From positions 158,550,828 to 158,614,827 of the forward strand of contig OU015499.1 in the NCBI GenBank assembly GCA_907164885.2: DNA of 64,000 nt, in the 5' to 3' direction. How positions within the stretch are numbered: the first letter of the stretch is position 1; each line of letters starts with the position of its first letter. The stretch is from Dolomedes plantarius. Lineage: Eukaryota; Arthropoda; Arachnida; Araneae; Dolomedidae. The notes under the pieces were generated by a model that saw only the letters and a list, made by a program, of their open reading frames with translations, searched no databases and was not told where the DNA came from. Below are positions 4,872 through 49,594 of this stretch, piece after piece. A program made the position numbers and the translations under genes.

Positions 4872-6032
4872 TTACATAAAATTCTTGTGTTTTAAATGTT
4901 CTATTTGACATCCCTTATTCTGAACTATCTTCCGACACCGCAATTTCCAGGATAATAATGCCTTTTGAAGTGTCACAAGAGGTATTCTATCCCATTCCTC
5001 CTGAACAGCTTTCCAGAGTCCTGTAAGGGTTTGGGGACGACGTTTGGATAATGCAGATTTTAAAAGTCCGAAAGCACAAAAATCCATAGGTGATACATCG
5101 GGAGATTTAGTAGGGATATCAGTGGAGGGTATGGCCTTGATACCAGTTTTTTGTTCCATTTCTTTTAGGAAATTTACAGTGGATTGTGATGTGTGACTGC
5201 TAGCTTTGTCCCGATGGAGTCTCACAGATTGATGGCACTGTGGGTAAAGCGATGGCATTTCATTCAGAAAAATTGGTGATAAAATATGTTCCTGATAGTA
5301 TTTGGAGTTAATCTTGACATTTTTTTCCACTCTCTTTATTTTTAACTTGCCATTATAAGAAAAACCAGCAACAATCATGAATCCCTTAGAAAAACTTTCT
5401 TTCGATTCTTTGAACCATGTACTGAAATTTTTTTCTCCCCTTTTATGATAATAAATGGCTCTTTTTTGGTTGCAATCATTTAAATACACCCATGATTCAT
5501 CTGTTGTGACAATTGTTTTCCATTTTTCTTTGGATAAGTGTTTCTCATATAGAATTCTGCAGCGTGTCCTGCGTTCAGCGATATGATTTGGAAGAAGACG
5601 ATGCACATTGCGTTTTTTCGCTTTCTTAAGATTTAAATCAACGTTTATCATTTTGTTTACAGTGGACACCGAGCATTTTAATGATTTTGCAACTGTCCTT
5701 TGACTAGGGGGATTTTCTTTTAACATTAAACAACGTACCTTTGCAATAGTCGAAGATGTCCGTTTTTTCCTTGGATACTTGTTTGGAATTTTTGTCCCAC
5801 TTGAGGCTCCAATTTGACGTTTTTTTCCTTTCTTGTTGACGATATTACCTATCGACGCTTTAGATATCACAAAACGATGACTCTCACATCGTTTTTGGAT
5901 AACGGAGTATGCATATTTCTCTTCGGAAAGAGCATAAATGTAGCCTTCGAACCACTGCTTTGTTAAAAACGCCATTTTGAATAAAAACAAAACTTTCAAG
6001 CCGCAGACGATAATTTTGACTTTTAAAAACAT
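4872..6032 (-). CDS. DD41D Tc1/mariner-superfamily transposase, uninterrupted frame
   Basis: An open frame of 386 codons encodes a cut-and-paste transposase. The likely start is the internal methionine at 5975 (MAFLTKQWF), giving 367 residues; the 19 residues upstream look non-coding. The N-terminal third has helix-turn-helix-like blocks (SKASIGNIVNKKGKK and SQRTVAKSLKCSVSTVNKM). The catalytic blocks are TTDESWVYL, LHRDKASSHTS and KSPDVSPMDF. Forty-one residues lie between the second and third aspartates, so this is DD41D rather than the DD34D of mariner or DD34E of Tc1. DD41D is the spacing reported for the rosa group. TA repeats flank the gene on both sides. No clear terminal inverted repeat was found by eye. 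The lack of stops suggests a young copy, but activity cannot be judged. Confidence 0.85.
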   Translation of the reverse strand: MFLKVKIIVCGLKVLFLFKMAFLTKQWFEGYIYALSEEKYAYSVIQKRCESHRFVISKASIGNIVNKKGKKRQIGASSGTKIPNKYPRKKRTSSTIAKVRCLMLKENPPSQRTVAKSLKCSVSTVNKMINVDLNLKKAKKRNVHRLLPNHIAERRTRCRILYEKHLSKEKWKTIVTTDESWVYLNDCNQKRAIYYHKRGEKNFSTWFKESKESFSKGFMIVAGFSYNGKLKIKRVEKNVKINSKYYQEHILSPIFLNEMPSLYPQCHQSVRLHRDKASSHTSQSTVNFLKEMEQKTGIKAIPSTDIPTKSPDVSPMDFCAFGLLKSALSKRRPQTLTGLWKAVQEEWDRIPLVTLQKALLSWKLRCRKIVQNKGCQIEHLKHKNFM

Positions 6033-6066
6033 AGTACAATTGCAATTATTTCTTTTTCAGCAAACG

Positions 6067-6109: not shown

Positions 6110-6931
6110 CAAGAAAACGCGTCTTCCTAAATTACTTATAAAGCATATTGTTGTCGAATAATCTCGAACGTGAAAGGTTGAAGACCCCTGTATTAGACAG
6201 CGGAACTAACTCATTCGCAAAACCAAGTTATATTCGAATTGTTTATCCGCTAAGCACCCGGTTTCGAGCTGTAATGCCTCCTTTACATGTCATTACTGTA
6301 AACAGAAACACCATTCACGCCTACACGAGAGCAATTAATAATCATAAGTACTCCATGGCAGCTCTCTATCGCAAGCCAACATTCTGCTGATGATGCGTCA
6401 CGGGCGATCAGATTGTCCAAACAAACTCAAGTATATCTATAAATTCATAGTGACGTCGGCTTTCGCACTTTTACCGACCCGTGTTTATGTGAAAGATTCC
6501 TCTGAGCAGATCAAACTAGTTAGAGACTCAGGGAACGTTCATAACCGAAATATTTTATGCCTACCCAGAAAATCTCATCTTATATCTGGGTTAGCGCACT
6601 CTCAAGTGGTTATTACTCCATCGAGCTTACATTATTAAAAGCAGTAAAGTAAGATCATGTTGTAGCTCTTGACGAATTATTCAGCATTTAAGTATTTTTA
6701 TAATTGTATGTTTCAGTTTAAAACATTTTTAATATATATCAAATCTAAATGAGTGCTTATACTGTGCATAGCTGGGGAAAATAAAAGTCTGTATTTGTAT
6801 TAAGTACTTTTTTGGCTATTTTTATTTGAAGTATGTAGAATGACATTATGACTGTTTGTAACTATTATACTGTACCAAATCCGTGATACGGAAACATATT
6901 TTAAAAAGTGAATTCCAAATACAGAAACAAA
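6109..6931. other. no gene recognised
   Basis: Two adjoining open stretches of 80 and 82 codons on the plus strand (6148-6390 and 6390-6638) show no known motif and no coding context. The stretch ends at ACAAA (6927-6931), the left target duplication of the copia element. Confidence 0.4.
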
Positions 6932-7304
6932 TGTTGTGATTTTATTTCTTCCAAATATGAACTTCCGTACAAAGGTGGTAGTGAAAAGTTCACTTACCTG
7001 GTATCTATTGATACACAGAGCTCTTGAAGAAATGTTCCTTGTAGCATCTAATGCCGGTGAAACTAACTGAGTAGTCAAATTAATTCCATCAGTAAACTTT
7101 AAATTACTTTAATAAACATGAACACAAAACTTATACAATTATTGCTACTGACGACATTAATACAACTAGCTACTACAGACATGATTAAGGAAGTGCGTGT
7201 GAACAAAACAAACACAGCCACACAGAGCCTATTCCCAGTGCCATCTGGTGGTTGCTAGGAAATTGTTAGATTACATAGAGAACAGAAATTTATGATTTCC
7301 AACA
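6932..7304 (-). repeat. copia 3' LTR
   Basis: This 373-bp LTR reads on the minus strand from TGTTGGAAATCATAAATTTC (at 7304) to ATAAAATCACAACA (at 6932). It follows the polypurine tract directly. Its first part (7195-7304) matches the 5' LTR remnant at 13104-13201. TATTAAAG (near 7107) could serve as a transcription signal, but this is not certain. Confidence 0.85.
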
Positions 7305-7317
7305 TCCCCCCTTAATC
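7305..7317 (-). other. copia polypurine tract
   Basis: On the minus strand TTAAGGGGGGA lies directly before the LTR start TGTTGG. A purine run in this place is the primer site for plus-strand DNA synthesis in LTR elements. Confidence 0.85.
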
Positions 7318-9345
7318 TAGCAATTTTGAGAAGAAATTAAATTTAGCTTTTCCCTTATTTTTCGTAAATTGGGGTCTGGGAAGATGCTTTGTCATGATAT
7401 CGGCAATCATGTCTTTGCTGCTGCAAAAATCTACCTGCAAGACATTCTGCTCTTGTAAATGTCTAATATAGTGGTATTTCACGTCTATATGCTTGGTTCT
7501 TGAATTGTTCCTTGCAGATTGTGTCAGCACAATGCAGGATTCGTTGTCTTCAAACAGTTTGATTGGTAGACATTGTTCAAGATCTAAGTCTTTGAGTAGA
7601 TTCAGTATCCACTGTAGTTCTTGTGCGGCGTTTGCTGCAGCAATGTATTCCGATTCTGTTGTTGATAGTGCAATGCAGCTCTGTCAGCACAATGCAGGAT
7701 TCGTTGTCTTCAAACAGTTTGATTGGTAGACATTGTTCAAGATCTAAGTCTTTGAGTAGATTCAGTATCCACTGTAGTTCTTGTGCGGCGTTTGCTGCAG
7801 CAATGTATTCCCATTCTGTTGTTGATAGTGCAATGCAGCTCTGTCAGCACAATGCAGGATTCGTTGTCTTCAAACAGTTTGATTGGTAGACATTGTTCAA
7901 GATCTAAGTCTTTGAGTAGATTCAGTATCCACTGTAGTTCTTGTGCGGCGTTTGCTGCAGCACTGTATTCCGATTCTGTTGTTGATAGTGCAATGCAGCT
8001 CTGTCAGCACAATGCAGGATTCGTTGTCTTCAAACAGTTTGATTGGTAGACATTGTTCAAGATCTAAGTCTTTGAGTAGATTCAGTATCCACTGTAGTTC
8101 TTGTGCGGCGTTTGCTGCAGCAATGTATTCCGATTCTGTTGTTGATAGTGCAATGCAGCTCTGTCAGCACAATGCAGGATTCGTTGTCTTCAAACAGTTT
8201 GATTGGTAGACATTGTTCAAGATCTAAGTCTTTGAGTAGATTCAGTATCCACTGTAGTTCTTGTGCGGCGTTTGCTGCAGCAATGTATTCCGATTCTGTT
8301 GTTGATAGTGCAATGCAGCTCTGTCAGCACAATGCAGGATTCGTTGTCTTCAAACAGTTTGATTGGTAGACATTGTTCAAGATCTAAGTCTTTGAGTAGA
8401 TTCAGTATCCACTGTAGTTCTTGTGCGGCGTTTGCTGCAGCAATGTATTCCGATTCTGTTGTTGATAGTGCAATGCAGCTCTGTCAGCACAATGCAGGAT
8501 TCGTTGTCTTCAAACAGTTTGATTGGTAGACATTGTTCAAGATCTAAGTCTTTGAGTAGATTCAGTATCCACTGTAGTTCTTGTGCGGCGTTTGCTGCAG
8601 CACTGTATTCCGATTCTGTTGTTGATAGTGCAATGCAGCTCTGTCAGCACAATGCAGGATTCGTTGTCTTCAAACAGTTTGATTGGTAGACATTGTTCAA
8701 GATCTAAGTCTTTGAGTAGATTCAGTATCCACTGTAGTTCTTGTGCGGCGTTTGCTGCAGCAATGTATTCCGATTCTGTTGTTGATAGTGCAATGCAGCT
8801 CTGTCAGCACAATGCAGGATTCGTTGTCTTCAAACAGTTTGATTGGTAGACATTGTTCAAGATCTAAGTCTTTGAGTAGATTCAGTATCCACTGTAGTTC
8901 TTGTGCGGCGTTTGCTGCAGCACTGTATTCCGATTCTGTTGTTGATAGTGCAATGCAGCTCTGTCAGCACAATGCAGGATTCGTTGTCTTCAAACAGTTT
9001 GATTGGTAGACATTGTTCAAGATCTAAGTCTTTGAGTAGATTCAGTATCCACTGTAGTTCTTGTGCGGCGTTTGCTGCAGCAATGTATTCCGATTCTGTT
9101 GTTGATAGTGCAATGCAGCTCTGTCGTTTGGAGAACCATGATATTATGTTATTACCAAGGAGAAAGATGTTTCCACTTGTAGATTTTCTTGTTGTTTTAT
9201 CACCAGCCCAATCAGCATCGGAGTAGCAGGTGAGGACGGGTGCCTTTTCGTTGTCGAATACCAGATTTAAGTTCTTGGTGGTGTTGAGATACATGATGAT
9301 TTTCTGAACTGCTTTCCAATCTCTCTCGGTCGGTTCTTCAACCTT
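7318..9345 (-). pseudogene. copia RNase H domain, broken by tandem array
   Basis: The minus strand from about 9345 encodes RLSRKVEEPTERDWKAVQKI, then CYSDADWAGD and SCIALSTTESEYIAAANAAQ, the RNase H core of copia elements. It then runs into the 160-bp array. Because 160 is not a multiple of three, the frame is lost in the second unit and ends at 8857. After the array the C-terminus resumes in 7530-7312 as LTQSARNNSRTKHIDVKYH, followed by DMIADIMTKHLPR. A short deletion with frameshift near 9350 separates this domain from the reverse transcriptase. Confidence 0.85.
7526..9125. repeat. ten tandem 160-bp units inside copia RNase H
   Basis: The period is exactly 160 bp (AGCACAATGCAGG recurs at 7526, 7686, 7846 and so on), and ten units fill 7526-9125. 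Units are nearly identical. At one site the units read A, A, C, A, A, A, C, A, C, A in order from left, and unit 2 alone has CCC for CCG five to six bases later. The unit is part of the RNase H gene itself: it runs from CIALSTTESEY to ESCIVLT on the minus strand. The junction has TGTC on both sides (7522-7525 and 9122-9125), which suggests microhomology at the first duplication. The plus-strand 88-codon frames that recur with the period are artefacts. Confidence 0.97.
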
Positions 9346-9350
9346 TCGGC

Positions 9351-10218
9351 TCAGTCTGTCAGTCTTGATACTGTGGCGATATAAAGGAGAGCTCCAATAG
9401 CTTGTCTATATTCTGCATTATCAGTCAGAATGTTCGTATCATCTTCAGTTTTCAAGTAAGATGTTTCCATTGGAATATATGTGGGTTTACCTTCCTTCAT
9501 ATTAAATTTCTCCAGTAATTCTTCAATTTTTAGCTTTTGGTTAAAATCAAATGTGCCATTAAGATTTCTTTGGATGTTGATTCCAAGATAATGTTTTACA
9601 TCACCTAAGTTCTTTATTTCAAAGTTTTCTCTCAGCATATCAATCACTTGTTTGATCTTAGTTTCATCTTTACTTGCAATTAGGAGATCGCCAACGTATA
9701 GAATGATTATTATATTCTTGCCTTCATCCTTTTTCGTAAAAAGACATGGGTCTGATGTGCTTTGCTTGAAGTTGCTTTTCTGTAAGACTTCTGTGATTTT
9801 AAAATTCCAGGCGCAAGCTGCCTGTTTTAGTCCATATATTGCCTTTCTTAACTTGCAAACTTTATTCTCATGACCAGGCTCTATATATCCTTTCTTCATT
9901 AAGGTCTCCGTGTAAGAAAGCTGTCTTGATGTCTACGTGTTTCACGTGCATGTTTTGGTAGACCGCAGCTGCAAAGAAGGCTCTTATGGTAGTATGTTTA
10001 ACAACTGGTTCAAAGGTCTCATCATAATCAGTTCCGAATTTTTGGCTGTAACCTTTGGCGACGAGTCTGGCTTTGTAGCGTTCGATTTTTCCTTCTTCAT
10101 TTAATTTAGCTTTAAATGTCCACTTGCAGTTTATGGGTTTCTTATCTTTTGGTAGCTGTACGAGATCCCATGTTTGATTTTTGTTAAGAGATTTTATTTC
10201 CTCCTCCATTGCTTCCAT
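9351..10218 (-). pseudogene. copia reverse transcriptase, frameshifted, YVGD active site
   Basis: The first part (10218-9868) carries the copia signature from MEAMEEEIKSLNKNQTWDLV through YKARLVAKGYSQ to DIKTAFLHGDLNEE. A frameshift with a small deletion near 9890 moves the rest to another frame (9899-9351), starting GYIEPGHENKVCKLRKAIYG. The catalytic motif, normally YVDD, reads YVGD at residues 68-71 of the second part, so an aspartate that binds catalytic metal is missing. The frame ends at RLTD near 9351. This polymerase would be inactive. Confidence 0.9.
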
Positions 10219-10227
10219 CCATTTCTT

Positions 10228-11949
10228 CTATTCTGCAGGATTTAGAGAATCCAGGTCTTTATAACTTCCAGGCTCCTTCTTTGCTCCTTTGGCAAGGTAG
10301 GAATATCGCTCTGGTGGTTTTCCTTTGTTCATTCTCTCAGATCTTCTTGGTTGTACAAGAGATTCTTCCTTTAGAATATTGGAATCTTGTTGAGGTGTCT
10401 CTTCTTCTATTTCTTCTTGGGTTTCATTATTCTCTTCTAGAGGAATGGCAGTTTCGTCTTTATCTGAACTTGTATTTTCGATAAACTTGACTGTTCGGCT
10501 TATTATGACTTGGTTATCAGATACATAGATCCGGTATCCCTTGCTTCGGTGATCGTAGCCAATTAGGATTCCTTCAACAACTTTCTCATCTAATTTTCCC
10601 CTTTTGGTTTTGTGAACGTATGCGAATTCTTTGGATCCAAAAGTTCTGATATTGGACAAGTCCGGTTTTCTGCCGGTCCACAGTTCAAATGGTGTTTCCT
10701 TGTTGGCTTTAGTAGGCAACCTGTTCTGAAGATAGTTTTCTGTCATGACTGCTTCTGCCCAGAATCTTTGGGGAAGATTTGCTTCTGATAAGAGGCATCG
10801 TGTCATTTCCATTATACTCCTGTTCTTTCTTTCCGCTACACAATTCTGTTGCGGAGAGTACGGTACGGTCAATAGGTGCTCAATTCCTTGACTCTTAGTG
10901 AATTCTTCTATTTCTTTTCCTATGTATTCACCCCCATTGTCACTTCTGAGGGTTTTAAGTGTTCTTCCGAATTTATTCTTAGTCATTGCTACATATTCTT
11001 TAAATTTAGAACAGACCTCACTCTTGTTAGTCAGCAGATAAATCATAGTAAATCTTGAGAAATCATCAACAAAGGTAAGAAAATAACTTTTCCCGCTAAC
11101 GCTCTTGGTTTGTATTGGTCCACACGGGTCACTATGAACGAGCTCAAGAGATTTCTTAGCCCTAAATTTCGATTCTTTGGGATAAGGAAATTCTGAAAGT
11201 TTATTTTTAATACAGTGTGTACATTTCATTTCCTTTTCACAACTATCGAGCGCGATGCCATCAGCGAGATTGTCTCTCACAAGTTGCTTGATTGCATCCG
11301 TGCTTCGGTGCCCAAGGCGTTTATGCCATAAATTTATACGGTTATCGTTCCTACAGTTCAAAGCGAACGTTGGAATTTCGTTCAGATCAATGTTTTCGTT
11401 TGATATTACTTTGTAGAGACTATTGTCATTCGAGATCGCTTCTAAATACACCATGTTATTTTTCACAACAAAGCATTTGTTTTCTTCGAAAATGACCGAA
11501 AAACCCTTTTCAGTAATTCTTTTTACTGATATTAAATTACATTCCAAATCAGGTAAGAAATATGCGTTTATTAAATTAATATCGTGACTGGTTCCGTCGG
11601 ATAATTTTGTCTGAAAATGAACGGTACCGAACGGTCTGAACGGAAATGAACGGTCTGAAAATGAACGGTTCCTTGCGAAAATAAACATTTCCCATCTGCC
11701 ACGATGTATTTTCACAGGTTCCGTGTTAAAATTTATGTCCGAAAATAGATTGAGGTCGGTGATTAAATGCTGACTGGCTCCGCTGTCTATATAAAAACAT
11801 TCATTATAGTTGTATGTGCAAGAGCTTTTCAGCTGTCTGTTTGATTTACAAACTGAAGCACACTGATCGCTGCCCATATCATCAGTATTCAGAATCGAAC
11901 CAACTGAAACACATGACTCACAGCTCGTTGAGTCGTTTCCGCGTAACAT
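10228..11949 (-). pseudogene. copia protease and integrase
   Basis: The 573-codon frame has protease motif YIDSGASQHL (aspartate about residue 55), a gag-pre-integrase zinc region around INLWHKRLGHRS with CTHCIKNK, and an integrase core with VHSDPCGP, LRSDNGGEY and AERKNRS, the D, D and E blocks. The C-terminal part has the GYDHRSKGYRIY type motif and an acidic linker. A single TAG at 10228-10230 interrupts the frame before the reverse transcriptase, which continues in the same frame from 10218. Gag lies in another frame just upstream; whether this is a frameshift site or decay is not clear. Confidence 0.92.
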
Positions 11950-11987
11950 GCTGGAATACTCATCGCATTTGTTTATGTGTTCGCCGT

Positions 11988-13043
11988 CTACTGTTGACGT
12001 CTACTAGAATTCTGATTTTTAACATGCATGCATGTTGCGGTTTTGTCATTAAACTTTGGATTCTTTTCATCCATTTTCGCGACGCTAGCTTTGTTAGTGT
12101 TCTGCTTCCGATTATTACTATTCGCTTGAGGGTAAAATTTACTTCGGTTTTGACCGTTCTTATTCTTTAAGTGATAACAAAAGTCTCGAGAATGACCGGA
12201 TTTCTTGCAGTATGTACAGAATTTGTCATTTTTGTTTTCATTGCGTTTATAGACATTTGTTTTGAAAGCTTGTGTAACCTCTCGCTCAGCGTTCATTTCA
12301 ATGCGACGGTTGTACTCGTCAGTTAATTTATTCTTAATTAATTTTGGCGTTTCTGATCTCGCTTCCAGAGCAGTTATTAAGTGATCATATGATTTAGGTA
12401 CAGAAACAAGAAGCAATGCGGCAATGTAATCGTCTTTTATTTCTTCTCCCACGGCTTTAAGTTTATCAATTAACTCAAGAATTTTAGCGATATGCTCATT
12501 CATATTACCGTCTTCTGACATTTTTGTTGCTTATAATTTTCGAAGTAAGAAAAGTTTGCTCGATAAATTTGTTCTTTCGTGTCTAGCTTTAAGCTTATCC
12601 CACGTCGCTTTTGCAGTTGTTTCATATTTGATATGAATTATTTGTGAATCTTCTATACAGAGATTAATTGATGCACGAGCTCAGTGGCGTAGCGTGGGGT
12701 GGGCAAGGGGGTCTATCACGCCACTCGAACAGGGGCGCCAAATGGTCCTTTTCACTAATTCTATATACTATATTACTTTATGTTTTTCGGAAAGGGGGGC
12801 GCCAAAACAGTATCGTGCCCCGGGCGCCAGTTATGCTCGCTACGTCACTGCACGAGCTTGTCTGTCACGTTTTAAAAGTTTCGCGTCCGCTTTATCTAAA
12901 ATTTCGGTTTCGATTAGATCATATAAATCCTCCTTGATGAGGATCATTTCCATTCGAAATTTCCATATGGAATAATTGGTATCATTTAATTTAGTAATTT
13001 GAAGATTATTTTCCTTCAAATAAGACATTTTCAATTGATACAA
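11988..13043 (-). pseudogene. copia gag, interrupted
   Basis: Gag begins near 13028 (MSYLKENNLQITKLNDTNYS, a copia gag start) and is cut at about 12850 by a hAT MITE. It resumes at about 12673 with ATWDKLKARHERTNL and continues to SRRQQ at 11988. A zinc knuckle, CTYCKKSGHSRDFC, lies about 90 residues into the 12521-11988 part; the last residue is Cys in a C-x2-C-x4-H-x4-C pattern. A stop (TAA) lies near 12530. Gag forms the particle that packages the RNA. Confidence 0.85.
12682..12850. mobile_element. hAT-type MITE, TSD CACGAGCT
   Basis: The 169-bp element starts CAGTGGCGTAGCG and ends CGCTACGTCACTG. It is flanked by an exact 8-bp duplication, CACGAGCT, at 12674-12681 and 12851-12858, the length made by hAT transposases. 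It codes for nothing. The interior has G and C runs. Its ends resemble the MITE at 24839-25014. Confidence 0.93.
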
Positions 13044-13103
13044 AGTTTTTGTTTCGATTTCAAGCTTAGCTTTCGATTACTCTCAGTTTGTTAATAATAA
13101 TTT

Positions 13104-13201
13104 AACAAACACAGCCACATAGAGCCTATTCCCAGTGCCATCTGGTGGTTGCTAGGAAATTGTTAGATTACATAGAGAACAGAAATTTATGATTTCCAAC
13201 A
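13104..13201 (-). repeat. copia 5' LTR remnant
   Basis: About 98 bp match the first part of the 3' LTR, from TGTTGGAAATC (13201) to the GTGTTTGTT near 13104. The remaining 270 bp and the primer-binding site are absent; gag starts only about 75 bp further on. A deletion within the 5' LTR and leader is the simplest reading. Confidence 0.85.
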
Positions 13202-13370
13202 ACAAATATGCCAGTTACCGCAATTGAAAAACAGAAATTTTATAAGCAGCAAATCTTTAGTACACTTTTTCACAACTTGCAAAAGTTGACAAAATAAGAA
13301 CAACGAATCTTCGCTGAAAGTCGACAAATTCCAGCACCTAAGAACTTTTCTTTACAAGTCAGGATTTTAA

Positions 13371-16300
13371 GGGGTCTCAGGAGTATTACTTTTTCACTGA
13401 AGGTGCAATTTAGCATCATGTTACATTTAATTTTATTTCTCATTCCCTATAAAACATAAATGCATGAATTTTTTGCCACTGAAAACTTAATATATCTTCT
13501 ATGTAGCATAATTATTTCAATATTCTACAACTGGTATTTTAATTAATTTTTAAATTTTAATTTTGATGAAAATTTTAAAATTGTGTTTTGGCTTGCATCC
13601 ATTGCGCGCAAGACTGTAGCAAAACTATTGGGTCCAGAGTCCCAAAAAATATTGATAATGATGTAAAACTAATGTATATTTAACGTATACTTCATTTTTA
13701 AGCAATTAAAAACTTTAATTTTAATTTTAATTTTAATAAATTTCAAAATTTTTTAAAAAAGCATTTTTTTATTGAAAACATGTTAATTTTAAATAATTAA
13801 TGCAATTAAAAATACTAAATTTGAAGTATACATTATTCCTTGCATCCAAATGAATGTATTTACCCAGTTTTATAGAAATTGCTTTATCAGTTTCAAAGAA
13901 ATGTTACGGCAAAGCATAAAATCTTACAAACTGAGAAAATTGCATTTAAAGATTAAATTGTAACAAAATTTTAAAATTTTATGAATATAATATAATTGAA
14001 CTATAATAAGAAATACATCTTACCTTTTTAAATATTGCTTTCCAGTATTTTTAATTAAAAAAATATTTTTAAAGAATCCTGAAGCATTTTCAATGTTGTC
14101 GATACTTGAAATCTCACAAAAACAATTTCCCACAAGATTGCATATATGCATAAAATCATTTTCCTATAAACTATGGCTACCATTATATTTATGTATACTA
14201 AATGTAAACTGAAAATGAAATATTGTATTTCTTATAAAGGTAATTTAAATGAAAGAAATGACAAAAACTGTAAAACCCAAGTATTTTGAAAATTGATGTC
14301 TTATACTTTTCAATGGATGTATCATGTAACACAAACACACACACACATATATATATATATACAAATGCATGTAACATTACACTTCAGTGATTAAAATTCT
14401 CCTGATGCATACATTGTGCCTTCTAACATTTTTTCTGATTCATGTTTTAAAGTTTTAAGTCTTTTTTGTTTTTTGTTTTATGACCCTCGAGTGTTGCTGC
14501 TTTGGCACGATTTTCTGCAGTTTCCATTCTTTTTTTGTCCTTTTCATGAATGTTCTTCAGTGCACATTTTGATATAGGCAAGTCTAAAATTTGCATTATT
14601 TCTATAATACCTTTATTATCATCATTAAATATGACTGTAGCAATAGAAGCAGCAATTTCTGCTACCTTTCTACCACTGCCAATAGTTTTTGGACAGTATT
14701 TCCAAAGCATTGAATTGAAGAACTCATTTGGATTCTGAGTTTTACCTTCAAGATAGCGTGTCAATAAATCAGGGTGGGACAGGTCTTTAAAAATTGGCTT
14801 TATGGCTAGCATTACAGGAAAAGGAATAGTATGTTTATGTTTAAATTCTTCGTTATTTGAAACTGCTCGGTTATACTTGCACCAGGAATTTTTCCCTTTG
14901 AGACAAAAATAGTGCATGGCTTCCTAATCAGATGATGCTGTATGAGACCAAACAGCCCAAATACTCTTATTACCTCTAATGGCATTACCATAGTAGGTTG
15001 TGAGTTTTAAAATCAGGGAATCGGTCAATCGTCCCTTTCCTCCAATAGTTTTCCTATCAGAAAGTTTTGTTCCCTGCATTTGAGTCTTTAATTTTCTCAT
15101 ACGAGAATCCATTCTTATTTGAATGTGATCAATACACTCTATTTTATTAATGTTTATATCATCATAAGGTTTTGCGTCTTTTAGAGCTAGAAAAGTTTTT
15201 GTATCGCCATCTCCAATATAACTTGTATAGCGTACACTATGCTTTTCAAGTGATCGAGAAAATATTGTAAGCATACCAGAAACTTCCATTTTCCCCGCTG
15301 ATCCATTATGCTTTTTTTTGCACAGTTTAGCATGTTGTTTTTCCAGATTTGAAAGCGAACACCGCTTTTGGGTCCTTTATATGATTCGCATCCTTTACAG
15401 TATGCTGACATAACATGTGTGTCTATTACTTTGCCTGTATTGGCACCAATAACAGCACATGCACCTATAATTGAAGAATGGCCCCTGGTTTTCCAGGTGC
15501 CATCTCCACTGATAGTTAAATCAGTACTGCCATAATTTGTAGCTGTTTCTTGTAGCATAGCAACTTGCATGGAATTTTCAGCAGCAGATGAAGCAGCTAC
15601 ACAAATTTGATTGTTTGTAGCATTATATGCCTTTTGAGACACAGGATTTTGTAAACACATTATATTACAAAATGTTTGCAAGTCTGTCAGGCTTTTACCA
15701 ATGCACCTCATTGCTAAAGTAGCACGACTGTTAATTTCAGGAATATTAAATTTTTCACCAATTAGTCTGTTATTTCTGAAAATATTAACTTCTTTCCATA
15801 TCTTACATGCTATTTGAAATGTAGAGCTCAATCCACAAACCAATTTTTCCTCTATTTTTACTTGTCCATTACAAGTTTTACATACTAGATAATTTTCCAG
15901 ATTTTCAAATAATATAGCAATGTCCATAAACCTATAACCTGAAAATGTTTTAGGACAGCTTTTACTGAAGTTTGATAACTTTCGATCTGAAGCACTCACT
16001 TTCTTAGCTTTGTGAACTTTTCGGCTATCCACGAATTTATTTCCATGAAATATTTTTTTTTCTGGGCCTTTCCCCAGACTTCCTTTTCCTTTTAACACTT
16101 TCCATTTGAAGATATTTATATACACAATATAAGATAAAAAAAAGGTAATCCACAAGTAAAGAAATAGAGAATAACTGCGCAACAAGATTCACAAACATGT
16201 GCTTATTTTCAACTGAATTATAGTAAACAACTTGTCTGACTTGACAAACGTAGGTGTCATATTGTAGGTTGGATGCTTATTTGATGTTCTGCAGTGTACT

Positions 16301-18445: not shown

Positions 18446-19856
18446 CACTGCTGGCCACCCAAATTGCAACACCAAGAAAGGCAAGAGATATCACAACAAA
18501 ATTTATTTTGTAGATAACATGTTGACCAAGTATCAAATGATTAAATTTATAGACTTCTGTGAAGTGTGGTTCCTGCCAAAATCAGTAGCCAGAGTAGCCG
18601 CCATTGTTGGAGATCACCGCTGCCACACGCCTCGGCATTGATTCAAAGAGACTTTGGATGAGTTCTTGGGGTACAGCAGACCAAGCAGCTTCCACACGTT
18701 GCCAAAGTTGATCTGCTGTGGCAGCTGGGGATGGAATCTGGGTCAATCGTAGAGCAACCATGGACCACATGTTTTCTATCGGCGAAAGATCCGGAGAGCG
18801 AGGCGGCCAGGGAATCAATTCAATCTGGCGATTGACGAAGAACCGTTGGACAATGCGTGCCACGTGTGGTCGCGCATTATCCTGTTGAAATATGGCTGTG
18901 GGCAAGCCCTGAGGGTAAGGAAGGACAACTGGCTCCAACACCTTGGAGATGTAGCGTTGGCTGTTTAAAGTACCGGCAATGCGTACTAGAGGTGTGCGAG
19001 AGTGATATCTAATACCGCCCCATACCATAATACCCGGTGCAGAACCAGTGTGGCGGTGCATAACGCAGCTGTTCAGCATCCTCTCTTCACGGTGTCTCCA
19101 GACTCGAATGCGACCATCGTGGTGTTGCAGACAGAAGCGTGACTCGTCAGTAAAGACAATTTCATTCCATTCTGCCGTCCACATCCTTCTATAATCGCAC
19201 CATTGTTGGCGGAAACGTCTGTGGTTCTGCGCCAAGGGTAGACAAAGCAATGGACGTCTTGCGGACAGACCACTCTGCTGTAAACGGCGTCGAATGGTAC
19301 GCGCAGACACTGGATGATGCGTTACAGACTGCATGTGCTGTGCTATGGTTCGTGATGTGACTGAGCGATCCGTCACTGCCATGCGCACAATTTGCCTGTC
19401 ATCACGTGAAGTGGTGCGCTGAGGTGGTTACGATCGAACATGCCGGTCCGTCGTACCCTCCTGCATCCAACGATCACATATCCGCATTACAGGTGTTTGG
19501 TTTCGTCCAACACGACTACCGATTTCCCTGAAAGATAATCCACAATCTCGGTAGGCCACTATCCTTCCTCTGTCGAACTCGGATACTTGATCAAAAGATG
19601 ATCGCTGTTTTCGACGAGGCATAATTGATCGTTTTTTTTGAAAAAAACCACAAGAAAAACACAATTGCCGAACTTGAAATCGTCGAAATCTCCAAGCCTT
19701 AAATAGCGCTTTGAAGTGGCGCCACAGGCGCGCGTGATGTGCGTCTGCGCTGAAATTCTAATCATTTGCATATCTCACCTCTGCTAATGCATGTTGTAAA
19801 TTTCATGTTATTTGCATGTTTCCTTCAGGGTGTTGCATTTACAGTGGCCAGCAGTG
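18446..19856 (-). mobile_element. Tc1-like DD34E transposon with TIRs
   Basis: The terminal inverted repeats are CACTGCTGGCCAC... at 18446 and ...GTGGCCAGCAGTG at 19856, with a shared GCAACACC block slightly inward. TA flanks both ends (18444-18445 and 19857-19858). The 1.41-kb length is typical of Tc1 elements. It sits inside Helitron-like element A and is therefore younger. Confidence 0.92.
18582..19622 (-). pseudogene. Tc1-like transposase with one nonsense codon
   Basis: The frame runs from MPRRKQRSSFDQVSEFDRG (19622) to the stop at 18582, about 346 codons, near full length for the family. The N-terminus has a helix-turn-helix with LSFREIGSRVGRNQTPVMRI, followed by ISARTIRRRLQQSGL-like second helix-turn-helix sequence. 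Catalytic blocks are VFTDESRFCL, IFQQDNARPHVA and SPDLSPIENMW; 34 residues separate D and E, so DD34E. A single in-frame TAA at 19428-19430 is the only break seen. No other lesion is visible, so the copy is recent. Confidence 0.93.
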
Positions 19857-20508
19857 TATATATATTTATAAAAAAATCGTGAGAGATATTTTTATAGACA
19901 AAATAATGTAGAAGAAGATATTGAAATTAAATCTAATATAAAGAATACTAAAGAATATAGTACAGTTAATATAGTACAGTTTGTAGAACATTTTTTTTTA
20001 CTGTATTTTAATATTTTTTTGGATATTGTCCAATCGTCTGCCGCATTATCAGGGGAAAAAATATTTTTTTGTCTATTTAGTTTTTATGCACGTGACGATA
20101 AATTTATTTAAAGTACCAGCAAAAGAAATCACGTGATCGGCATTTAATAAATTAAATTCTAAAAATTAATCTTTAAAAATTCACCAAAAATCGGGAAATG
20201 GAGGTAAAGATTCGAAAAATATTTCATTTTAAAGGAATTTTTATGATCTTTCTCGTGATATAAATTATATAACCCTCAAATTATTATTTTAATGAAAACT
20301 TGGAAAAAAGTTAAAAAAAAACAGCTTAAAAATTTAATTTAAAAAATCTAAGAAGAATTTTTCAAAAATCTTTCTTAGTGCACCCCTACACCATAAGAAG
20401 AATCGCCATGCAAAATGTCAGCCCTTTAGGTCCAGCGGTTTGGTCTGTGCGTTGTATGTCAGTCAGTCAGTGAGTGAGTCAGTTACGGAACTGTTTTATA
20501 TGTATAGA

Positions 20509-21005
20509 CTAGCTGAAAAAAGCCACTTCGCTATCCTATCTTGATAACTTAACTTCGTGCTTTCGTTGTGCACTGCTATCGCTCGCGTCTCGGGACTCGC
20601 TGGTCTGGGGTTCGACCCCCGTCTGAGCAGTCTACCCTTTTCCAAAATTTCCTTCCTTCTAATTTTAGCCTCCCCTCGAGGCTTCGCTATCATCTCTTTA
20701 TGTAGTTGTACGACCCTGAAACGGGCCTTTTTTATTTTCGTTTCCTCTCGACTAGTGTTTAAACTTTTAATTATTAAACTAAATTAACTTTCTAGTTTCT
20801 TCTTTGAGCCATACTTAATTATTTAACTTTATTTACCGCTCTCTCTCCTCCTTAAGTTTAATCTTAGTAGTAATGTACTCTTATCTTAAAATATCTTCCA
20901 TCTTTAATTTTAACTTTACTGAGCACAGATATCTTGACACCTTTTAACTTGCTTACTGGAGATAAAGTCCAATCGGACCAAGGCACTCCAATTCATAAAC
21001 ATCAA
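20509..21005. repeat. tRNA-like SINE head within a CTAG-ended repeat
   Basis: The segment starts CTAGCTGAAAAAAGCCACTTCGC, abutting element A. At about 20565-20625 there is a tRNA-like stretch with a box B match, GGTTCGACCCC (20609-20619), and a weaker box A region near 20570. This suggests an RNA polymerase III SINE inserted in, or joined to, a Helitron-like copy. The remainder is T-rich and non-coding. The boundaries of the SINE are not resolved. Confidence 0.5.
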
Positions 21006-21189
21006 CTAGCCACTTCGCTACGGAGTACATTCAAATTAAATACAACGGTCAATGTATGCAATTAATAACAAAAAAAATAAATATATGTATATAAATATAT
21101 ATAATAAAAACGACGATCAATATATACAATTGAAGAAAAAAATATATAAATTTATAAAAAAATCGTAAGGGATATTTTTATAAACAAAA
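21006..21189 (-). mobile_element. Helitron-like element C, 5'-truncated
   Basis: Only the 3' end part is present: CTAGCCACTTCGCTACGGAG on the plus strand, then the ACATTCAAATTAAATACAACG segment shared by all copies, stopping in AT-rich sequence next to element D. Confidence 0.55.
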
Positions 21190-21742
21190 CTAGCTGAAAA
21201 CCCGCGCTTCGCTACGGAGTACATTCAAATTAAATACAACTGTCAATGTATGCAATTTATACCAAAAAATAAATATATATATTTATAATAAATGCGATGA
21301 TCAATGTATACAATTGATGTAAAATATATATCTATCTATCTATATATATATTTATAAAAAAATTGTAAGGGATATGCATTTTTTTTTTATAATATCCAAT
21401 CGTCTGCTGCATTAGAAAGAGAAAAAAATATTTTTTTTGTCTATTTAGTTGTTACGCACGTGACGATAAATTTATTGAAAGTACCAGAAAAAGAAATCAC
21501 GTGATCAGCATTTAATAAATTAAATTGTTAAAAATAGTTACAAAAACAGCTTAAAAATTTAATTTAAAAAAATCCAAGAAGAATTATTGAAAAATCTTTC
21601 TTAGTGCACCCCTACACTATTAGAAGAATCGCCATGCCAAATTTCAGCCCTTTAGGTCCAGCGGTTTGGTCTGTGCGTTGCATGTCAGTCAGTCAGTCAG
21701 TGAATGAATGAGTCAGTTACGGAACTGTTTTATATATACAGA
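21190..21742 (-). mobile_element. Helitron-like element D
   Basis: A complete 553-bp copy. On the minus strand it begins TCTGTATATATAAAACAG (21742) and ends CTAG (21190). It keeps the conserved block around GGTCCAGCGGTTTGGTC on the plus strand and the TCAGTCAGTC tract next to the 5' end. Confidence 0.6.
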
Positions 21743-22216
21743 TAATGTCCAAACGTCTGCCGCATTAGCAAGAAAAAAAATATTTTTTTGTCTATGTAGT
21801 TGTTATGCACGTGACGATAAATTTATTTAAAGTACCAGAAAAAAGAAATAGCGTGATCGGCATTTAATGAATTAAATTCTAAAAATTAATCTTTAAAAAT
21901 TCACCAAAAATCACAAAATAGAGGTAAAGATTCGAAAAAGATATCATTTTAAAGGAATTTTTAGGCTCTTTCTTGTGATATAAATTTTATAACCCTCAAA
22001 TTATTATTTTAAATGCAAACTTTAAAAAAAGTTACTAAAACAGCTTAAAAATTTAATTTTAAAAAATCTTAGAAGAATTTTTCAAAAATCTCTCTTAGTG
22101 CACCCCTACACTATAAGAAGAATCGCCATGCAAAATTTCAGCCCTTTAGGTCCAGCGGTTTGGTCTGTGCGTTGTATGTCAGTCAGTGAGTCAGTTACGG
22201 AACTGTTTTATATATA
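21743..22216 (-). mobile_element. Helitron-like element E, 3'-truncated, split at its 5' tip
   Basis: This copy lacks the CTAG end; it starts on the plus strand at ATGTCCAAACGTCTGCCGC. Its 5' tip was cut by the 1.86-kb TIR element: the last bases (GTATAGA) are found after that element at 24083-24089, directly before element F. Confidence 0.55.
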
Positions 22217-24080
22217 GGGTAGGTGGGGGCAAAGGTTTGCAGTTTTGAGTTTTGGGTTTTTTACGGGCCTCCGTTAGATCCTATCGCCCCAAAAAGTCAC
22301 TTGTATTGTAGTTGGGTATCCCCTCTACCTTCTATAAAATAATGAATGTTTTCCCGAAATATTTAGTCACCGAATTTTTAATTTTGCCAAAAGACCTGTT
22401 TGCGAACCTTTGCCCCAATCGGTGGGGCAAAGGTTCGCACTGCAAACCTTTACCCCACTCGTTGGTTTCTTACTGGATAGGCATCGAAAATCACAAAAAT
22501 AGTTGTCTAAATAATTTTATTTCACATTTTGTAATCTTTTTAAAGGTGTTACATATATAGAAAATCACAAATTGAACAGGTTAATCTCAATAATTTTTTT
22601 CTTAAACTAAATAACTTCAAAATGAAATATCAACTATTAACACAGAAAGTTGAATCTAACAATGAAATTCACAAAATGAAAAGGGGTTAATCTCAATAAT
22701 TTTTTTCTTAAACTAAAGAACTTCCAATTAAAATATCAACTATTAACACTATCGTTATATCATATCTTAGGCTTTACTCATTCTTTTAAAACCCGTAAAA
22801 ATTAAGCAAATTAATGGGATGGGGGACATTACAAAGCAATTTTTGAAAATTTTACCTCAGAGATATGAAATTGGGCATAAATATTCATTAAAGTAAAACT
22901 ATTTCAAACACCTTATAAAATTTTATAAATATTTAAAATTTTATTTTTTATATTTAAAAATTGAAATTTTTATTATGTTTTTTAAAATGCTCCTTGCGAT
23001 CCAATTTTTAACCTTATCCTTAATTTTGCATTTAGATTGCTTATACATTTTGATCAAGGTTATGTTTTGATTTGTGCTTTCGTGGAATAATTAATTTTTA
23101 GGAAATATTTTTATGCTTGTATTCTGAATTCTCGTGAAAATTTTGTACTTTTCCACGCTTAAGTTAAACTTTGATAATCTGAATGATGATGATATCGAAA
23201 CCTGAAATGGATACATAACTTTATTTTAATGTATAAGAGGAGTCTTTGTAATAAATTTTATAAAATTTCCTCAAAAATTGTGACGCAAGGAGCATTTCAA
23301 AGACTTGCAAATCTGGAAATTATTCATTTAGAGCTTTTTTCCCTAACCAGACCTTCGAAGCTTATAATGTCTTGTAACAACATTTAATTCTTTTATCTTG
23401 TAATATAGGTCTTTGTTCAGAGCTATTTTACTTTTGTGTTGTACTAATTTATTTTATTTTTAATTTATGGATTTTCAAGCATTTTACAAAAAATTTTCTG
23501 ATTAAAAACAGGCAGTTTTTATCAAAAACCATAATTTTTTTTCAAATTACAAAAATGTGAATTCCTATTAATAATAAAAGACGTTGTTAATAAGGATTCC
23601 TAATAAAAAGAGGACATGAAACAAATGTTAATAGTTAGAGGTGCAAAGGTTTGCAGATGGGGCAAAGGTTTACACTGCGAACCTTTACCCCATGACTCCC
23701 GCAAACCTTTACCCCATTTCGTGCTGGTTCTGTTTCTGCAGAATGGACGCCACTGTATTTGAGTTAACCCAAAACTTAAGGTAGGATTTGAAAGGTTATT
23801 TGCCACCCTAACATGCGAAAATAAGCCCAAAACAGTTCGTGAGTTTGAGTGATGCTCAAAGTTACTCAAAAGTTGCAAAAAATTACATTAAAAGAGACGA
23901 AAATAAACTTACCTCATTTTCTCTGCAAAAGGGGGTCTTAATTCCAACATTTTTTACGAGGCAACTGACTGGAAGTAGAGGAATGCATTGCCTACCCTAT
24001 TCTTCCTAAAACTCTTCCCGGTCATTTTAAAATGTATGTGCGAACCTTTGCCCCATGCGAACCTTTGCCCCCACCTACCC
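22217..24080. mobile_element. TIR element with repeated internal copies of its end motif
   Basis: The ends are inverted repeats of about 24 bp: GGGTAGGTGGGGGCAAAGGT at the left and the complement ending GCCCCCACCTACCC at the right. TA flanks both sides, in line with a Tc1/mariner/pogo-type TA target, though the superfamily is not certain. The motif (GGGGCAAAGGTTYGCA or its complement) recurs at about 22398-22460 (at least three times, both orientations) and at 23640-23725 (at least four times). No transposase frame was found; the interior is AT-rich. It is 1,864 bp and non-autonomous. Confidence 0.75.
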
Positions 24081-24089
24081 TAGTATAGA

Positions 24090-24775
24090 CTAGCTGAAAA
24101 CCCGCGCTTCGCTACGGAGTACATTCAAATTAAATACAACGGTCAACGTATGCAATTTATGCCAAAAAATAAATATATATATTTATAATAAATGCGATGA
24201 TCAATGTATACAATTGATGTAAAATATATATCTATCTATATATATATTTATTTATAAAAAAATCGTAAGGGATATGCATTTTTTTTTTGGATAATATCCA
24301 ATCGTCTGCTGCATTAGAAAGAGAAAAAAATATTTTTTTGTCTATTTAGTTGTTACGCACGTGACGATAAATTTATTGAAAGTACCCGAAAAAGAAATCA
24401 CGTGATCAGCATTTAATAAATTAAATTCTAAAAATGAATCTTTAAAAATTCACCAAAAATCAGGAAATAGAGGTAAAAATTCGAAAAAAATTTCATTTTG
24501 AAGGAATTTTTATGATCTTTCTTGTGATATAAATTTTATAACCCTCAATGTATTATTTTAAATGCAAACGTAAAAAAAATTAAAAAACAGCTTAAAAATT
24601 TAATTTTAAAAAATGTAAGAAGAATTTTTGAAAAATCTTTCTTAGTGCACCCCTACACTATTAGAAGAATCGCCATGCAAAATTTCAGCCCTTTAGGTCC
24701 AGCGGTTTGGTCTGTGCGTTGTATGTCAGTCAGTGAATGAATGAGTCAGTTACAGAACTATTTTATCTATACAGA
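24090..24775 (-). mobile_element. Helitron-like element F
   Basis: Complete copy of 686 bp. On the minus strand it begins TCTGTATAGATAAAATAG (24775) and ends CTAG (24090). It has the GGTCCAGCGGTTTGGTC block and a TCTATCTATATA tract. Confidence 0.6.
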
Positions 24776-24838
24776 TTACAATTCATTTCACCAAAGAGTG
24801 AGGATTCATGTTTTGATATAAATAAGGATGGACAGGAA

Positions 24839-26055: not shown

Positions 26056-28616
26056 TTTTTTTATTTCCAATGGCAAAGGAAAATGACAAACTCTTACAAG
26101 TTAACAAGATTAACAAGGAACAAGGAATATAAAAAAAAGGAACAGTAAGAGAAAAAAGTCAATGTCCCATCAGCAGATGTCGTGCTCTCCAATATCGCTT
26201 TACCTCGGAGTCTCCACGCAGAGCCGAGCATCCCAACAAATGGTTCCTGTCCATGATTTCATCTTTCCCACAAAGTGGGCAATTAGGACTCGCAAAAATG
26301 CCAATCCGGTGAAGGTGGTTCGCCAGACAGTCATGGCCCACCGTAAGTCTGAATTCCGCAACAGCCTTTTCACGGGGCTTATCTGAAATGTTTTGACCAA
26401 AGCTATTCCTCCAACTTCTTGAAGAAATGCGAGAAGTGAGCAATGCTTTCCAGTTTTGTCTCATTAGATTTTTGATATAAAGTTTTATGGAATGGAAAGA
26501 GTTAGAAGTATTTGGCTGTTGTAATATTTGAGTGCCCTTCTTAGCCAATATATCTGCCTGTTCGTTGCCATAAATATCACAGTGTCCTGGAATCCATTGG
26601 AGTGTTATTTGTCGTCCCTATGCCTTCAACCTATCCAGAAGAACCCGACAATCTAGGATATTTTTAGAGATGGGTATTTCCCTAGCTCCGATAGCCTGAA
26701 TGGCAGCCTTGGAGTCAGATAGGATAACCACCTTATTATAAAGGTGTCTGGGGACAAGTTGCTCCAGTGACACATAGATAGCCAAAACTTCCCCGTCAAA
26801 GGCGGTTTTTTGTTTTCCAACAGGCACATAAAAGGAAAAGATAGAAGAATATATTCCTGCTCCGACAAATGGTGAGAGTTCAGTCAAAGAACCATCGGTG
26901 TAAATATGTAACCATTCAGGCTCAGGGTAGAGGTTATGGATGGTCTCAAGTGCAAGGATCTTTAAGCTGCTTTGAGGCAATTGGCTCTTAAGGAATGGTT
27001 GGGCAAGGTCCAGCCTGGTAGTTATTTCAACATAGGTCACAGGGTTAGGGGATCTCAAGAAACCCTGGGCAATTCCATCATCGAGTTCCAGCTCTGCTCT
27101 TAATTCTAGGACTCTCTGTAAAAAACCACTTTGGGTCTTTAGCTGTCTTGGTACATTTTCATAACAGTTCCAAAACGGTACATTTAGTCTGATTAACTTT
27201 TCATAAAGTATAAGAGCCCTCTCTTCGATAATTGACTTAATGGGTCTAGTATTAGTGAGGAGTAGAAGTGAGTCGATGGGAGAAGTCTTCACTGCACCAA
27301 CGATCAGCCTGAGGGCCTGGTTTTGTATTAATTCCAGTTTATCGATCAGGTTCTCTGGGGCAGAGATAAAAACCTCACAACAATAAGTGATAACAGGTAA
27401 AAAAAATGTTTTATAGGAGTTTTCCAATGTAGTGCGGGCCCACCCCCAATGACAACCAGCCAGGCGTTTAAGGATGTATAGGCGTTTTACATAGGCGTTT
27501 CGATCACACTTTCAATATGCAGTTTCCAGCTTAACCTATTGTCAAAGACAACTCCCAGGTATGAGAATCTATCTGTATGCAACAACTCTTGGTCTCTGTA
27601 AATCAACTTTGGTCGGATGTTTTGATGCATCAGTGAAAAAGTCTGCACTGCAGACTTCCCAAGGTTCACTATCATGTTATTCTCTTCACACCATTCAGAT
27701 AGAGCCCTAAGAGCTCTATTCAAGAGCTTTTCTGTCTCTTGCTTTGCATTTTTCTTTGCAGCTTGGGACCACATAACCAGATCATCTGCAAACAGGAGGC
27801 ACTCCACTCCGATTGTCCTTAGGGCCAAAATCAGATCATTTATGTAAACATCAAAGAGTGAGCAGCTACTCACTGCTCCTTGGGGCAATCCGGTCTGGAG
27901 AATAAAGCTTTTGGAGGTTGAATGTCCGAAACGGACTTTACAGCTTCTCTGGCCCAGGAATGAAGAAAACCAACGTAGCATTTTACCTTCTACTCCAATT
28001 TCCTGGAGTTTCCAAAGCATATTTTCTCTCCATACGGAGTCGTATGCAGATTTAAAATCAATATAAATTGCTGACAAGACTTCCCTTCCATCAAGAGAAT
28101 CTTTAACCTTTTGGCTCAAATGAGCCACTTGATCAGCCGTGGACCTATTCTTAAGAAAACAAGCTTGTTCATGTCTGAGTAAATCATTAGTTTCAAGGAA
28201 CCAGTTCAGTCTATTGACAACCATGCGTTCCATTAATTTGGCCATAGTGCTAGTGAGTGAAATGGGCCTGTAGCTTCCAGTATTAGAAGCATCTTTGTCT
28301 TTTTTCAAGATAGGAACTATCGTAGCCCCTTTCCAATTTCCAGGCACTATTCTTGTCCTCCAAATGTGATTGAAAATCTTTAGAAGAGTTGATTTTGCAT
28401 TATTACCAAGATGTTTAAGAAACTCAGAATGAATTCCATCCTGTCCTGGAGATCTTTTGGTTTTCAGGTAATTCAGACAAAAGATGAACTCTTCTTCAGT
28501 GAAAGGTAAATCAAAAATATTCTCTGTGTCTGCCAAACGATGAGTCTGAGGTGGAGACAGTTTGCATGTGTCCCTTTTAAGAACTCTTGATGTCTTTCTA
28601 GCGTAAGCTCCTTCCT
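26056..28616 (-). mobile_element. non-LTR retrotransposon (LINE), 5'-truncated, 11-bp TSD
   Basis: The LINE is on the minus strand. It ends in an A-rich tail (AAATAAAAAAAAA on the minus strand). CTTAGCAACTT flanks it on both sides (26045-26055 and 28617-28627), an 11-bp target duplication. The order reverse transcriptase, RNase H, CCHC-like finger fits the I/R1/LOA-type members of the Jockey-I group. ORF1 and the endonuclease are missing: the copy begins inside ORF2 at about 28616. It is broken by a frameshift and a stop. Confidence 0.92.
26159..27427 (-). pseudogene. LINE RNase H and C-terminal zinc finger
   Basis: The frame from 27427 continues the reverse transcriptase thumb region (SYKTFFLPVITYCCEVF). 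RNase H follows with HIYTDGSLTE, GEVLAIYVSLEQL and VVILSDSKAAIQAI. A TAG at about 26618 interrupts it, after which WIPGHCDIYGNEQAD carries on in the same frame, and the end has LTVGHDCLANHLHRIGI and the finger CPLCGKDEIMDRNHLLGC. The frame stops at 26159. Confidence 0.9.
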
Positions 28617-28620
28617 CTTA
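27487..28620 (-). pseudogene. LINE reverse transcriptase domain
   Basis: Motifs in order are RSPGQDGIHSEFLKHLG, GSYRPISLTSTMAKLMER, EQACFLKNRSTADQV, IYIDFKSAYDSVWR, LPQGAVSSCSLFDVYINDL, the active site LLFADDLVMWS and FSYLGVVFDNRLSW. These are blocks of a non-LTR reverse transcriptase, with both active-site aspartates present. The frame is open upstream to about 28616, where the copy is truncated. A frameshift between 27487 and 27430 separates it from the RNase H frame. Confidence 0.93.
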
Positions 28621-37500: not shown

Positions 37501-38624
37501 AACCTAATGTGTCTAAAATAGTCTCAACATAAAAAATCCACTTATTTTTAAATAAGCGTGAGAGTACATTTAGGTTTAGAGCTTTATTTTTGATGTTATT
37601 ATATTATGAGGTATAGTGTTGTGGCCTGTATAACATAGCAAACATATGCTTGTGTCCCAATTTAAAGAAAGATGGCTGATTTAAATTCATGGTAGCTAAA
37701 ACTGCAGGTAACTGGGGCAAAAATTCAAATTTTTATCATTAAAATTATTAGTGTAAACCAAGGGTCCCCAGAGTGGTCAATATCGACCCCTTATGGTTGA
37801 TAAAGAGTTCTCTAGGGGTCAATGAATACACAAGGGTCGAAAGGGGGTTGGTGAATACATAAGGGTTGAAAGGGGCTCGATTAATACGAAAGAGAATCAA
37901 TTAAACTGTCTAGGAAAAAAATAAAATAGTCCAATAAAAATTTTAAATGTGGATATGATCAACTACTGACTACCCTAGTTATAGCTTGAGTTTTGCCTTA
38001 GCCTATGTTGCTTACAGTATGTGTTATAGGGATGCGACATCGATGTCGATGTTTTGATAAAATCATCGATTTATTGAAGCCGATGTTTTTTTAACCTCGA
38101 TGTTTTCTTTTTAATGAAAAAGTACCATAATAAAAAATATATACCACGTAGCATAATTTTCACACTCAGTAAATGTAAGTAAGTCTAAAAGGGGGATCGA
38201 TTCCTTAGCGAACAGACAAATGGCAATCAACAACCAATGAACCAATCAGAGTGCTTGGAATGTTCTTGACACTCCAGAACCTTCGATGGGGTTTTATTTT
38301 ATAAATAGTATATACACGAGAGCAGCCATTTAAGTTTTCGTTTTTTTCTGGTTTTATATAAGTTGACGTTAATATTATTAGTAAGATGCCTCCTAAAAGT
38401 ACCGTTTGGAAATATTTTTGCAAAACCTCTGACAAATTAGCGAAATGCAATATTTGCCTTAAGTCCCTCAAAACTTCTGGCAATACCACAAATTTATCTG
38501 GACATTTGAAGGCAAAACATGGCGATATTTACAACGATAATTTTGAGTCATCAATGTAGCCCAAGGCAAAAGCAACTAAGTTTTTGTCATTTGTGTCAGC
38601 CCAATCAGAGTAAAATTAAATCAC

Positions 38625-49528: not shown

Positions 49529-49594
<66 letters not shown>

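What the first reader, a model, noticed from the sequence alone, without database searches (positions are those of the whole stretch)
7526..9125. Exactly ten near-identical 160-bp tandem units inside a copia RNase H gene
The unit is part of the RNase H domain itself, not a foreign satellite. It is repeated ten times with a period not divisible by three, so the protein is destroyed. Variants (A or C at one site, in order A A C A A A C A C A from the left) suggest growth by unequal exchange of multi-unit blocks. It could be the birth of a satellite from a retrotransposon, or an assembly artefact.
Basis: seen in the sequence. Interest (0 to 1): 0.75.

Follow-up and report, generated by a model that had tools for sequence, protein, structure and literature searches.

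The report
Repeat expansion in one dead retrotransposon
In one broken copy of a copia retrotransposon in a large animal genome, a 160-base piece of its own RNase H gene has multiplied to ten copies in a row, while the related copies looked at have only one; it is a clean but ordinary example of how a tandem repeat starts.

Summary
Ten head-to-tail 160-bp units lie at 7522-9121, closed by TGTC. The A/C series is as stated; unit 2 has one more change. The unit is native RNase H sequence of a copia element on the minus strand, 6932-13201, with ACAAA on both sides.

Of 49 matches to the unit, 10 are this array and 39 lie elsewhere (a lower bound). Each of the 39 has one unit. So the array is private to this insertion among the copies found, and one unit is the ancestral state.

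All ten units share a change (site 21) absent from 38 of 38 scorable copies. Two later changes are seen; about 17 would be expected if ten units were as old as this copy's private changes.

Best reading: duplication at a 4-bp TGTC microhomology after insertion, then growth by unequal exchange, probably with multi-unit blocks. The copy is broken in other ways too. No second array was found, so 'birth of a satellite' is potential only. TE-derived tandem arrays are well known in print.

The parts
6927..6931 (.). target-site duplication ACAAA, 3' side of the element
   Evidence: identical to 13202-13206
6932..7304 (-). 3' LTR of the copia element, 373 bp
   Evidence: full-length match to the 5' LTRs of six other copies, 373-374 bp; its part 7207-7304 pairs with 13104-13201 at one mismatch in 98
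7312..7683 (-). end of the RNase H reading frame: unit 1 plus the 3' part of the gene
   Evidence: ORF of 123 aa; aligned with relatives; no Pfam match
7522..9121 (-). ten 160-bp tandem units of RNase H sequence
   Evidence: other copies found in the genome hold one unit, 39 of 39
9122..9125 (.). closing TGTC, same 4 bases as at 7522-7525: the microhomology at the junctions
   Evidence: a match of 4 or more is seen at 77 of 4072 random 160-bp spacings in the element
8857..9405 (-). upstream part of the RNase H region running into unit 10, then out of frame into unit 9
   Evidence: ORF of 182 aa; 63-65% identity to three Stegodyphus dumicola proteins over 55-59% of the query; no Pfam match
9351..9932 (-). 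reverse transcriptase, second part (RVT_2)
   Evidence: Pfam PF07727, E 3e-37; deletions of 23 and 27 bp near 9361 and 9891 shared by 0 of 15 other copies
9868..10227 (-). reverse transcriptase, first part (RVT_2)
   Evidence: Pfam PF07727, E 6.3e-32
10228..12000 (-). pol: beta-barrel, GAG-pre-integrase, integrase core, SH3-like domains, ending at a stop codon
   Evidence: Pfam PF22936, PF13976, PF00665, PF25597
11988..12530 (-). gag part
   Evidence: Pfam PF14223, E 2.5e-18
12682..12850 (.). 169-bp hAT-like MITE inserted in gag, 8-bp duplication CACGAGCT on both sides
   Evidence: ends and duplication read; absent from 6 of 6 other copies whose 5' end was reached; the hAT label rests on recalled knowledge of 8-bp duplications
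13104..13201 (-). remnant (98 bp) of the 5' LTR
   Evidence: 373-374 bp in 6 of 6 other copies reached
13202..13206 (.). target-site duplication ACAAA, 5' side

Best explanation
This is a young tandem array (minisatellite-like) that grew in place inside one already inserted, decaying copia retrotransposon. Shown: 39 of 39 other copies found have a single unit; the array is private to this copy among them; its ten units share one private change and differ by two later ones. Inferred: a break or stalled fork joined the two TGTC sites 160 bp apart and made a first duplication; unequal sister-chromatid exchange (or slippage) between the now homologous units then raised the number to ten, with at least one step copying more than one unit (or a conversion), which put the C at site 122 into three units. 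No function is proposed; the element was broken in other ways too.
For: Single unit in 39 of 39 other matches: 20 read with 1.5-kb flanks, 19 with 0.6-kb flanks. The left edge TGTC is present in 39 of 39 and the right edge TGTC in 33 of 39 (five have a base change there, and L055 is cut off at unit base 153). A microhomology of 4 or more occurs at 77 of 4072 random 160-bp spacings of the element. Site 21: C in 10 of 10 window units, T in 38 of 38 scorable copies, one gap, so it predates amplification. Site 122: A in 39 of 39 others, so C arose in the array. This copy has 16 private substitutions in 1489 flank sites against 15 copies; ten units of that age should hold about 17 unit-specific changes, 2 distinct ones are seen (Poisson 6e-6; 3e-4 with rate uncertainty). 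Both ends of the element and the target-site duplication are present.
Against: Homogenisation by exchange inside the array would also keep units alike, so the youth may be overstated. The 16 private changes may partly predate insertion; the nearest copy in the tree, L011, is joined with support of only 0.70 and no close sister was found to date the insertion. The LTR comparison rests on 1 difference in 98 bp (95% interval 0.03-5.6%); worked by hand, half of 1% per lineage gives about 8 expected changes (P about 0.01), and the lower bound would not reject equal age. Site 21 could have been present in an unsampled parent copy. The C at site 131 of unit 2 also occurs in 1 of 39 other copies. No reads were available.
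Confidence: 0.77

Rival explanations
1. The first duplication, or the whole array, arose during reverse transcription by template switching at TGTC, and the element inserted with it.
For: Tandem duplications by abnormal strand transfer are proposed for Ogre 3'UTR arrays (PMC7004042, passages read). Only one insertion found carries the array, which fits a dead-on-arrival cDNA too.
Against: Ten units of insertion age should differ more: about 17 changes expected, 2 seen, unless homogenised or unless the insertion is younger than its private changes suggest. An initial two-unit state at insertion cannot be excluded.
Confidence: 0.13
2. Assembly artefact: the unit number was inflated or invented.
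For: No reads could be examined.
Against: The contig is 169 Mb long in a 2.78-Gb genome of 390 contigs and the window has no N, which implies long reads (inference) that span 1.6 kb. Units differ in a placed pattern, and 39 of 39 other copies found were assembled with one unit, so the assembler does not tend to multiply this sequence.
Confidence: 0.06
3. The array was laid down many units at once (rolling circle on a small circle, or repeated fork restart), not by successive unequal exchanges.
For: 18 of 45 unit pairs are identical and the ends fall exactly on TGTC, as one-step amplification would give.
Against: The same C variant in units 3, 7 and 9 and not between them needs later copying of blocks or conversion, so one step is not enough.
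Confidence: 0.2
4. The array is part of, or the source of, a genomic satellite made of this unit.
For: A 160-bp period is in the usual monomer range (recalled), and TEs do give rise to satellites (PMC12628747, PMC9659126, passages read).
Against: The other 39 matches found are single units in element copies. The search scored 40 of 53 candidates and skips very common words, so it gives a lower bound, and the junction search did not complete.
Confidence: 0.04

Closest known systems
Satellites grown from short tandem arrays in Ogre LTR retrotransposons of Lathyrus sativus (PMC7004042; abstract and passages read)
   Same: Tandem units inside an LTR retrotransposon; growth in length at some loci
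   Different: There the arrays lie in the 3' untranslated region and belong to dispersed elements; here the unit is RNase H coding sequence and the array is in one of 40 copies found
TE-derived satellite DNAs from coding parts (reviews PMC9659126 and PMC12628747; passages read)
   Same: gag, pol and ORF2 pieces are listed as sources; proposed steps are microhomology joining or slippage, then unequal exchange
   Different: Those are mostly established satellites; here there is one ten-unit array with its single-copy ancestor state seen in 39 other copies
'SRS*N + unit + SRS*N' tandem amplification by unequal sister-chromatid exchange (PMC8831618; passages read)
   Same: A short repeat (median length 2-11 bp in that paper) on both sides of the amplified unit
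   Different: That screen kept only arrays whose short repeat varies in number; here TGTC occurs once at every junction

Membership tests
Ty1/copia LTR retrotransposon | integrase upstream of reverse transcriptase, copia-type gag | tested here: met
   PF14223, PF00665, PF07727 in that order on the minus strand
Ty1/copia LTR retrotransposon | RNase H after the reverse transcriptase | tested here: met
   by alignment with relatives; Pfam gave no match to these pieces
Ty1/copia LTR retrotransposon | two LTRs and 5-bp target-site duplication | tested here: met
   ACAAA on both sides; 5' LTR cut down to 98 bp in this copy, full in 6 of 6 others reached; 5-bp duplications matched in 5 of these 6, the sixth had its LTR edge trimmed by two bases in the match
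Satellite DNA | head-to-tail near-identical monomers | tested here: met
   ten units, 99% matches
Satellite DNA | long arrays or many array loci | tested here: not met
   one 1.6-kb array; 39 of 39 other matches single; lower-bound search
TE-borne tandem array that travels with the element (Ogre type) | same array in many copies | tested here: not met
   0 of 39 other copies found have a second unit
SRS*N + unit + SRS*N arrays | short repeat on both sides of each unit | tested here: met
   TGTC at each junction
SRS*N + unit + SRS*N arrays | number of short repeats differs between junctions | tested here: not met
   one TGTC at each junction

The most novel reading that the evidence does not exclude
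This is the first step of satellite birth caught at one site in an animal: the ancestral single unit, the 4-bp joint, a change dated before amplification and changes dated after it are all visible, so the order of events at the founding of a tandem array can be read, and the locus should be polymorphic in unit number in living populations.
Probability: 0.2. Interest if true: 0.45.

Novelty: new member of a known kind. Interest (0 to 1): 0.3.

Why it matters
The steps from single sequence to satellite are mostly inferred from finished arrays. Here 39 single-unit relatives in the same genome give the starting state, so the site of the first joint and the order of changes can be stated. It is a good worked case, not a new mechanism.

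Tried and rejected
Searches with no result: copia RT piece in viral contigs (1 stretch matched a pattern, not confirmed) and genome contigs (25 stretches, none confirmed); array junction 24-mer in viral contigs (none); unit against plasmids (none); RNase H piece against phages (none); the 88-aa frame that crosses a unit junction against the protein database (13 candidates, none at E 0.001); RNase H piece against solved structures (none); tRNA and Rfam scans of the window (none).

Block-duplication reading of A A C A A A C A C A: two block duplications from a four-unit A A C A array are enough, but 76 of 120 placements of three C units also need only two, so the order itself is not evidence; only the shared derived base is.

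Considered and dropped: a coding role for the array (frames break within each unit; both variants change the amino acid). A junction search of the whole genome for other arrays was asked eleven times and never answered (only waited).

Rows dropped before counting: L013, L014, L016, L018 and L019 have broken flank alignments and were left out of the private-change counts (15 of 20 used; the other 19 copies, fetched later, were not used there). Of nine 5' stretches fetched, L031, L034 and L039 did not reach the 5' LTR and gave no answer. The site 122/131 letters printed were read without turning the minus-strand loci and are void; replace them.

Full report
What is there. Ten 160-bp units stand head to tail at 7522-9121, closed by TGTC at 9122-9125. 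There are three kinds of unit: the common one, one with C at site 122 (units 3, 7, 9) and one with C at site 131 (unit 2). The unit has no other match in the window.

The host element. The array lies in a copia element on the minus strand. Pfam finds gag, integrase core, SH3-like and two parts of a copia reverse transcriptase. The RNase H part is recognised by alignment, not by Pfam: the ORF entering the array and the ORF leaving it share the unit and together align with relatives. The closest named proteins for this part are from the spider Stegodyphus dumicola at 63-65% identity (an unnamed one reaches 72% over 43% of the query); for the integrase part, Araneus ventricosus is second and third in the list.

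Ends and other damage. The element runs from 6932 to 13201 with ACAAA on both sides. Its 3' LTR is 373 bp; its 5' LTR is cut to 98 bp, with one mismatch between them in the shared part. A 169-bp element with inverted ends and an 8-bp duplication sits in gag. Of 9 other copies fetched at the 5' end, 6 were reached: these 6 have a 373-374-bp 5' LTR and none has the gag insert. Deletions of 23 and 27 bp in the reverse transcriptase region are shared by 0 of 15 other copies. The copy is therefore broken in several private ways, and the frame shift made by the array is only one of them. Six other copies differ between their LTRs by 0 to 4 bases of 372-374, so the family moved recently.

Single-unit relatives. 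A search of the genome with one unit gave 49 matches, 10 of them this array (53 candidates, 40 scored, so a lower bound). The 39 others lie at separate places on 14 contigs. Twenty were read with 1.5-kb flanks and 19 with 0.6-kb flanks. Each has one unit, 39 of 39. The edges are the same two places in the gene where the array begins and ends: left TGTC in 39 of 39, right TGTC in 33 of 39. L055 is cut off at unit base 153.

Order of events. Site 21 is C in all ten window units and T in 38 of 38 scorable copies: this change came before amplification. Site 122 is A in 39 of 39 copies, so its C arose in the array. Site 131 is G in 37, A in 1 and C in 1 of the 39; the C in unit 2 alone is best read as a later change too. 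Flanks of this copy carry 16 private substitutions in 1489 sites against 15 copies. If ten units had existed for the same time, about 17 unit-specific changes would be expected, and two are seen (P 6e-6, or 3e-4 with uncertainty in the rate). So the array is about a tenth as old as the private changes, or exchange keeps it uniform, or both; and some private changes may be older than the insertion. The LTR clock is too coarse to add much (1 of 98).

Mechanism. The two edges of the unit share TGTC. A match of 4 or more is found at 77 of 4072 random spacings of 160 bp in the element, so the joint fits microhomology-driven duplication, but one case is not proof. Once two units exist, unequal exchange can change their number. 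The three C units are not neighbours, and C is found at that site in none of 39 other copies, so block copying or conversion is needed. Two block steps from a four-unit array are enough, but this is true of 76 of 120 placements and is not evidence by itself.

What is known. Satellites grown from tandem repeats in LTR retrotransposons are established in plants (PMC7004042, abstract and passages). Reviews list gag, pol and ORF2 pieces as sources and name microhomology joining, slippage and unequal exchange (PMC12628747, PMC9659126; passages). A screen of 568 genomes describes units bounded by short repeats, six of them retrotransposons (PMC8831618; passages). I saw no published case of an RNase H unit in a copia element in the listings of searches, which does not show that none exists.

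Verdict. Real in the assembly, private to one insertion among 40 copies found, young or homogenised, and ordinary in kind. It is a nascent tandem array with its ancestral state in the same genome, not an established satellite.

Noticed in passing
window 37016-37902: A 444-bp tandem duplication, two copies at 99.3% identity over 443 bp, another recent local duplication in the same window.
   Followed up: partly
window 12682-12850: A 169-bp small DNA transposon with ends CAGTGGCGTAGC / GCTACGTCACTG and 8-bp duplication CACGAGCT inside gag; absent from 6 of 6 other copies reached.
   Followed up: yes
window 4872-6056: An uninterrupted 394-aa minus-strand frame next to the element that looks like a Tc1/mariner-type transposase by eye, but had no Pfam match at E 0.001.
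   Followed up: no
window 14924-16188 and 18582-19427: Pieces of a Mutator-like transposase (PF20700) and a Tc3-type transposase (PF01498, PF13358).
   Followed up: no
window 26618-28617: Remains of a non-LTR retrotransposon with reverse transcriptase (PF00078) and an RNase H match below the curated cut-off.
   Followed up: no
window 20014-24782, 42009-42382, 48962-49677: A family of dispersed repeats of up to about 500 bp, several copies at roughly 75-97% identity in both orientations.
   Followed up: no
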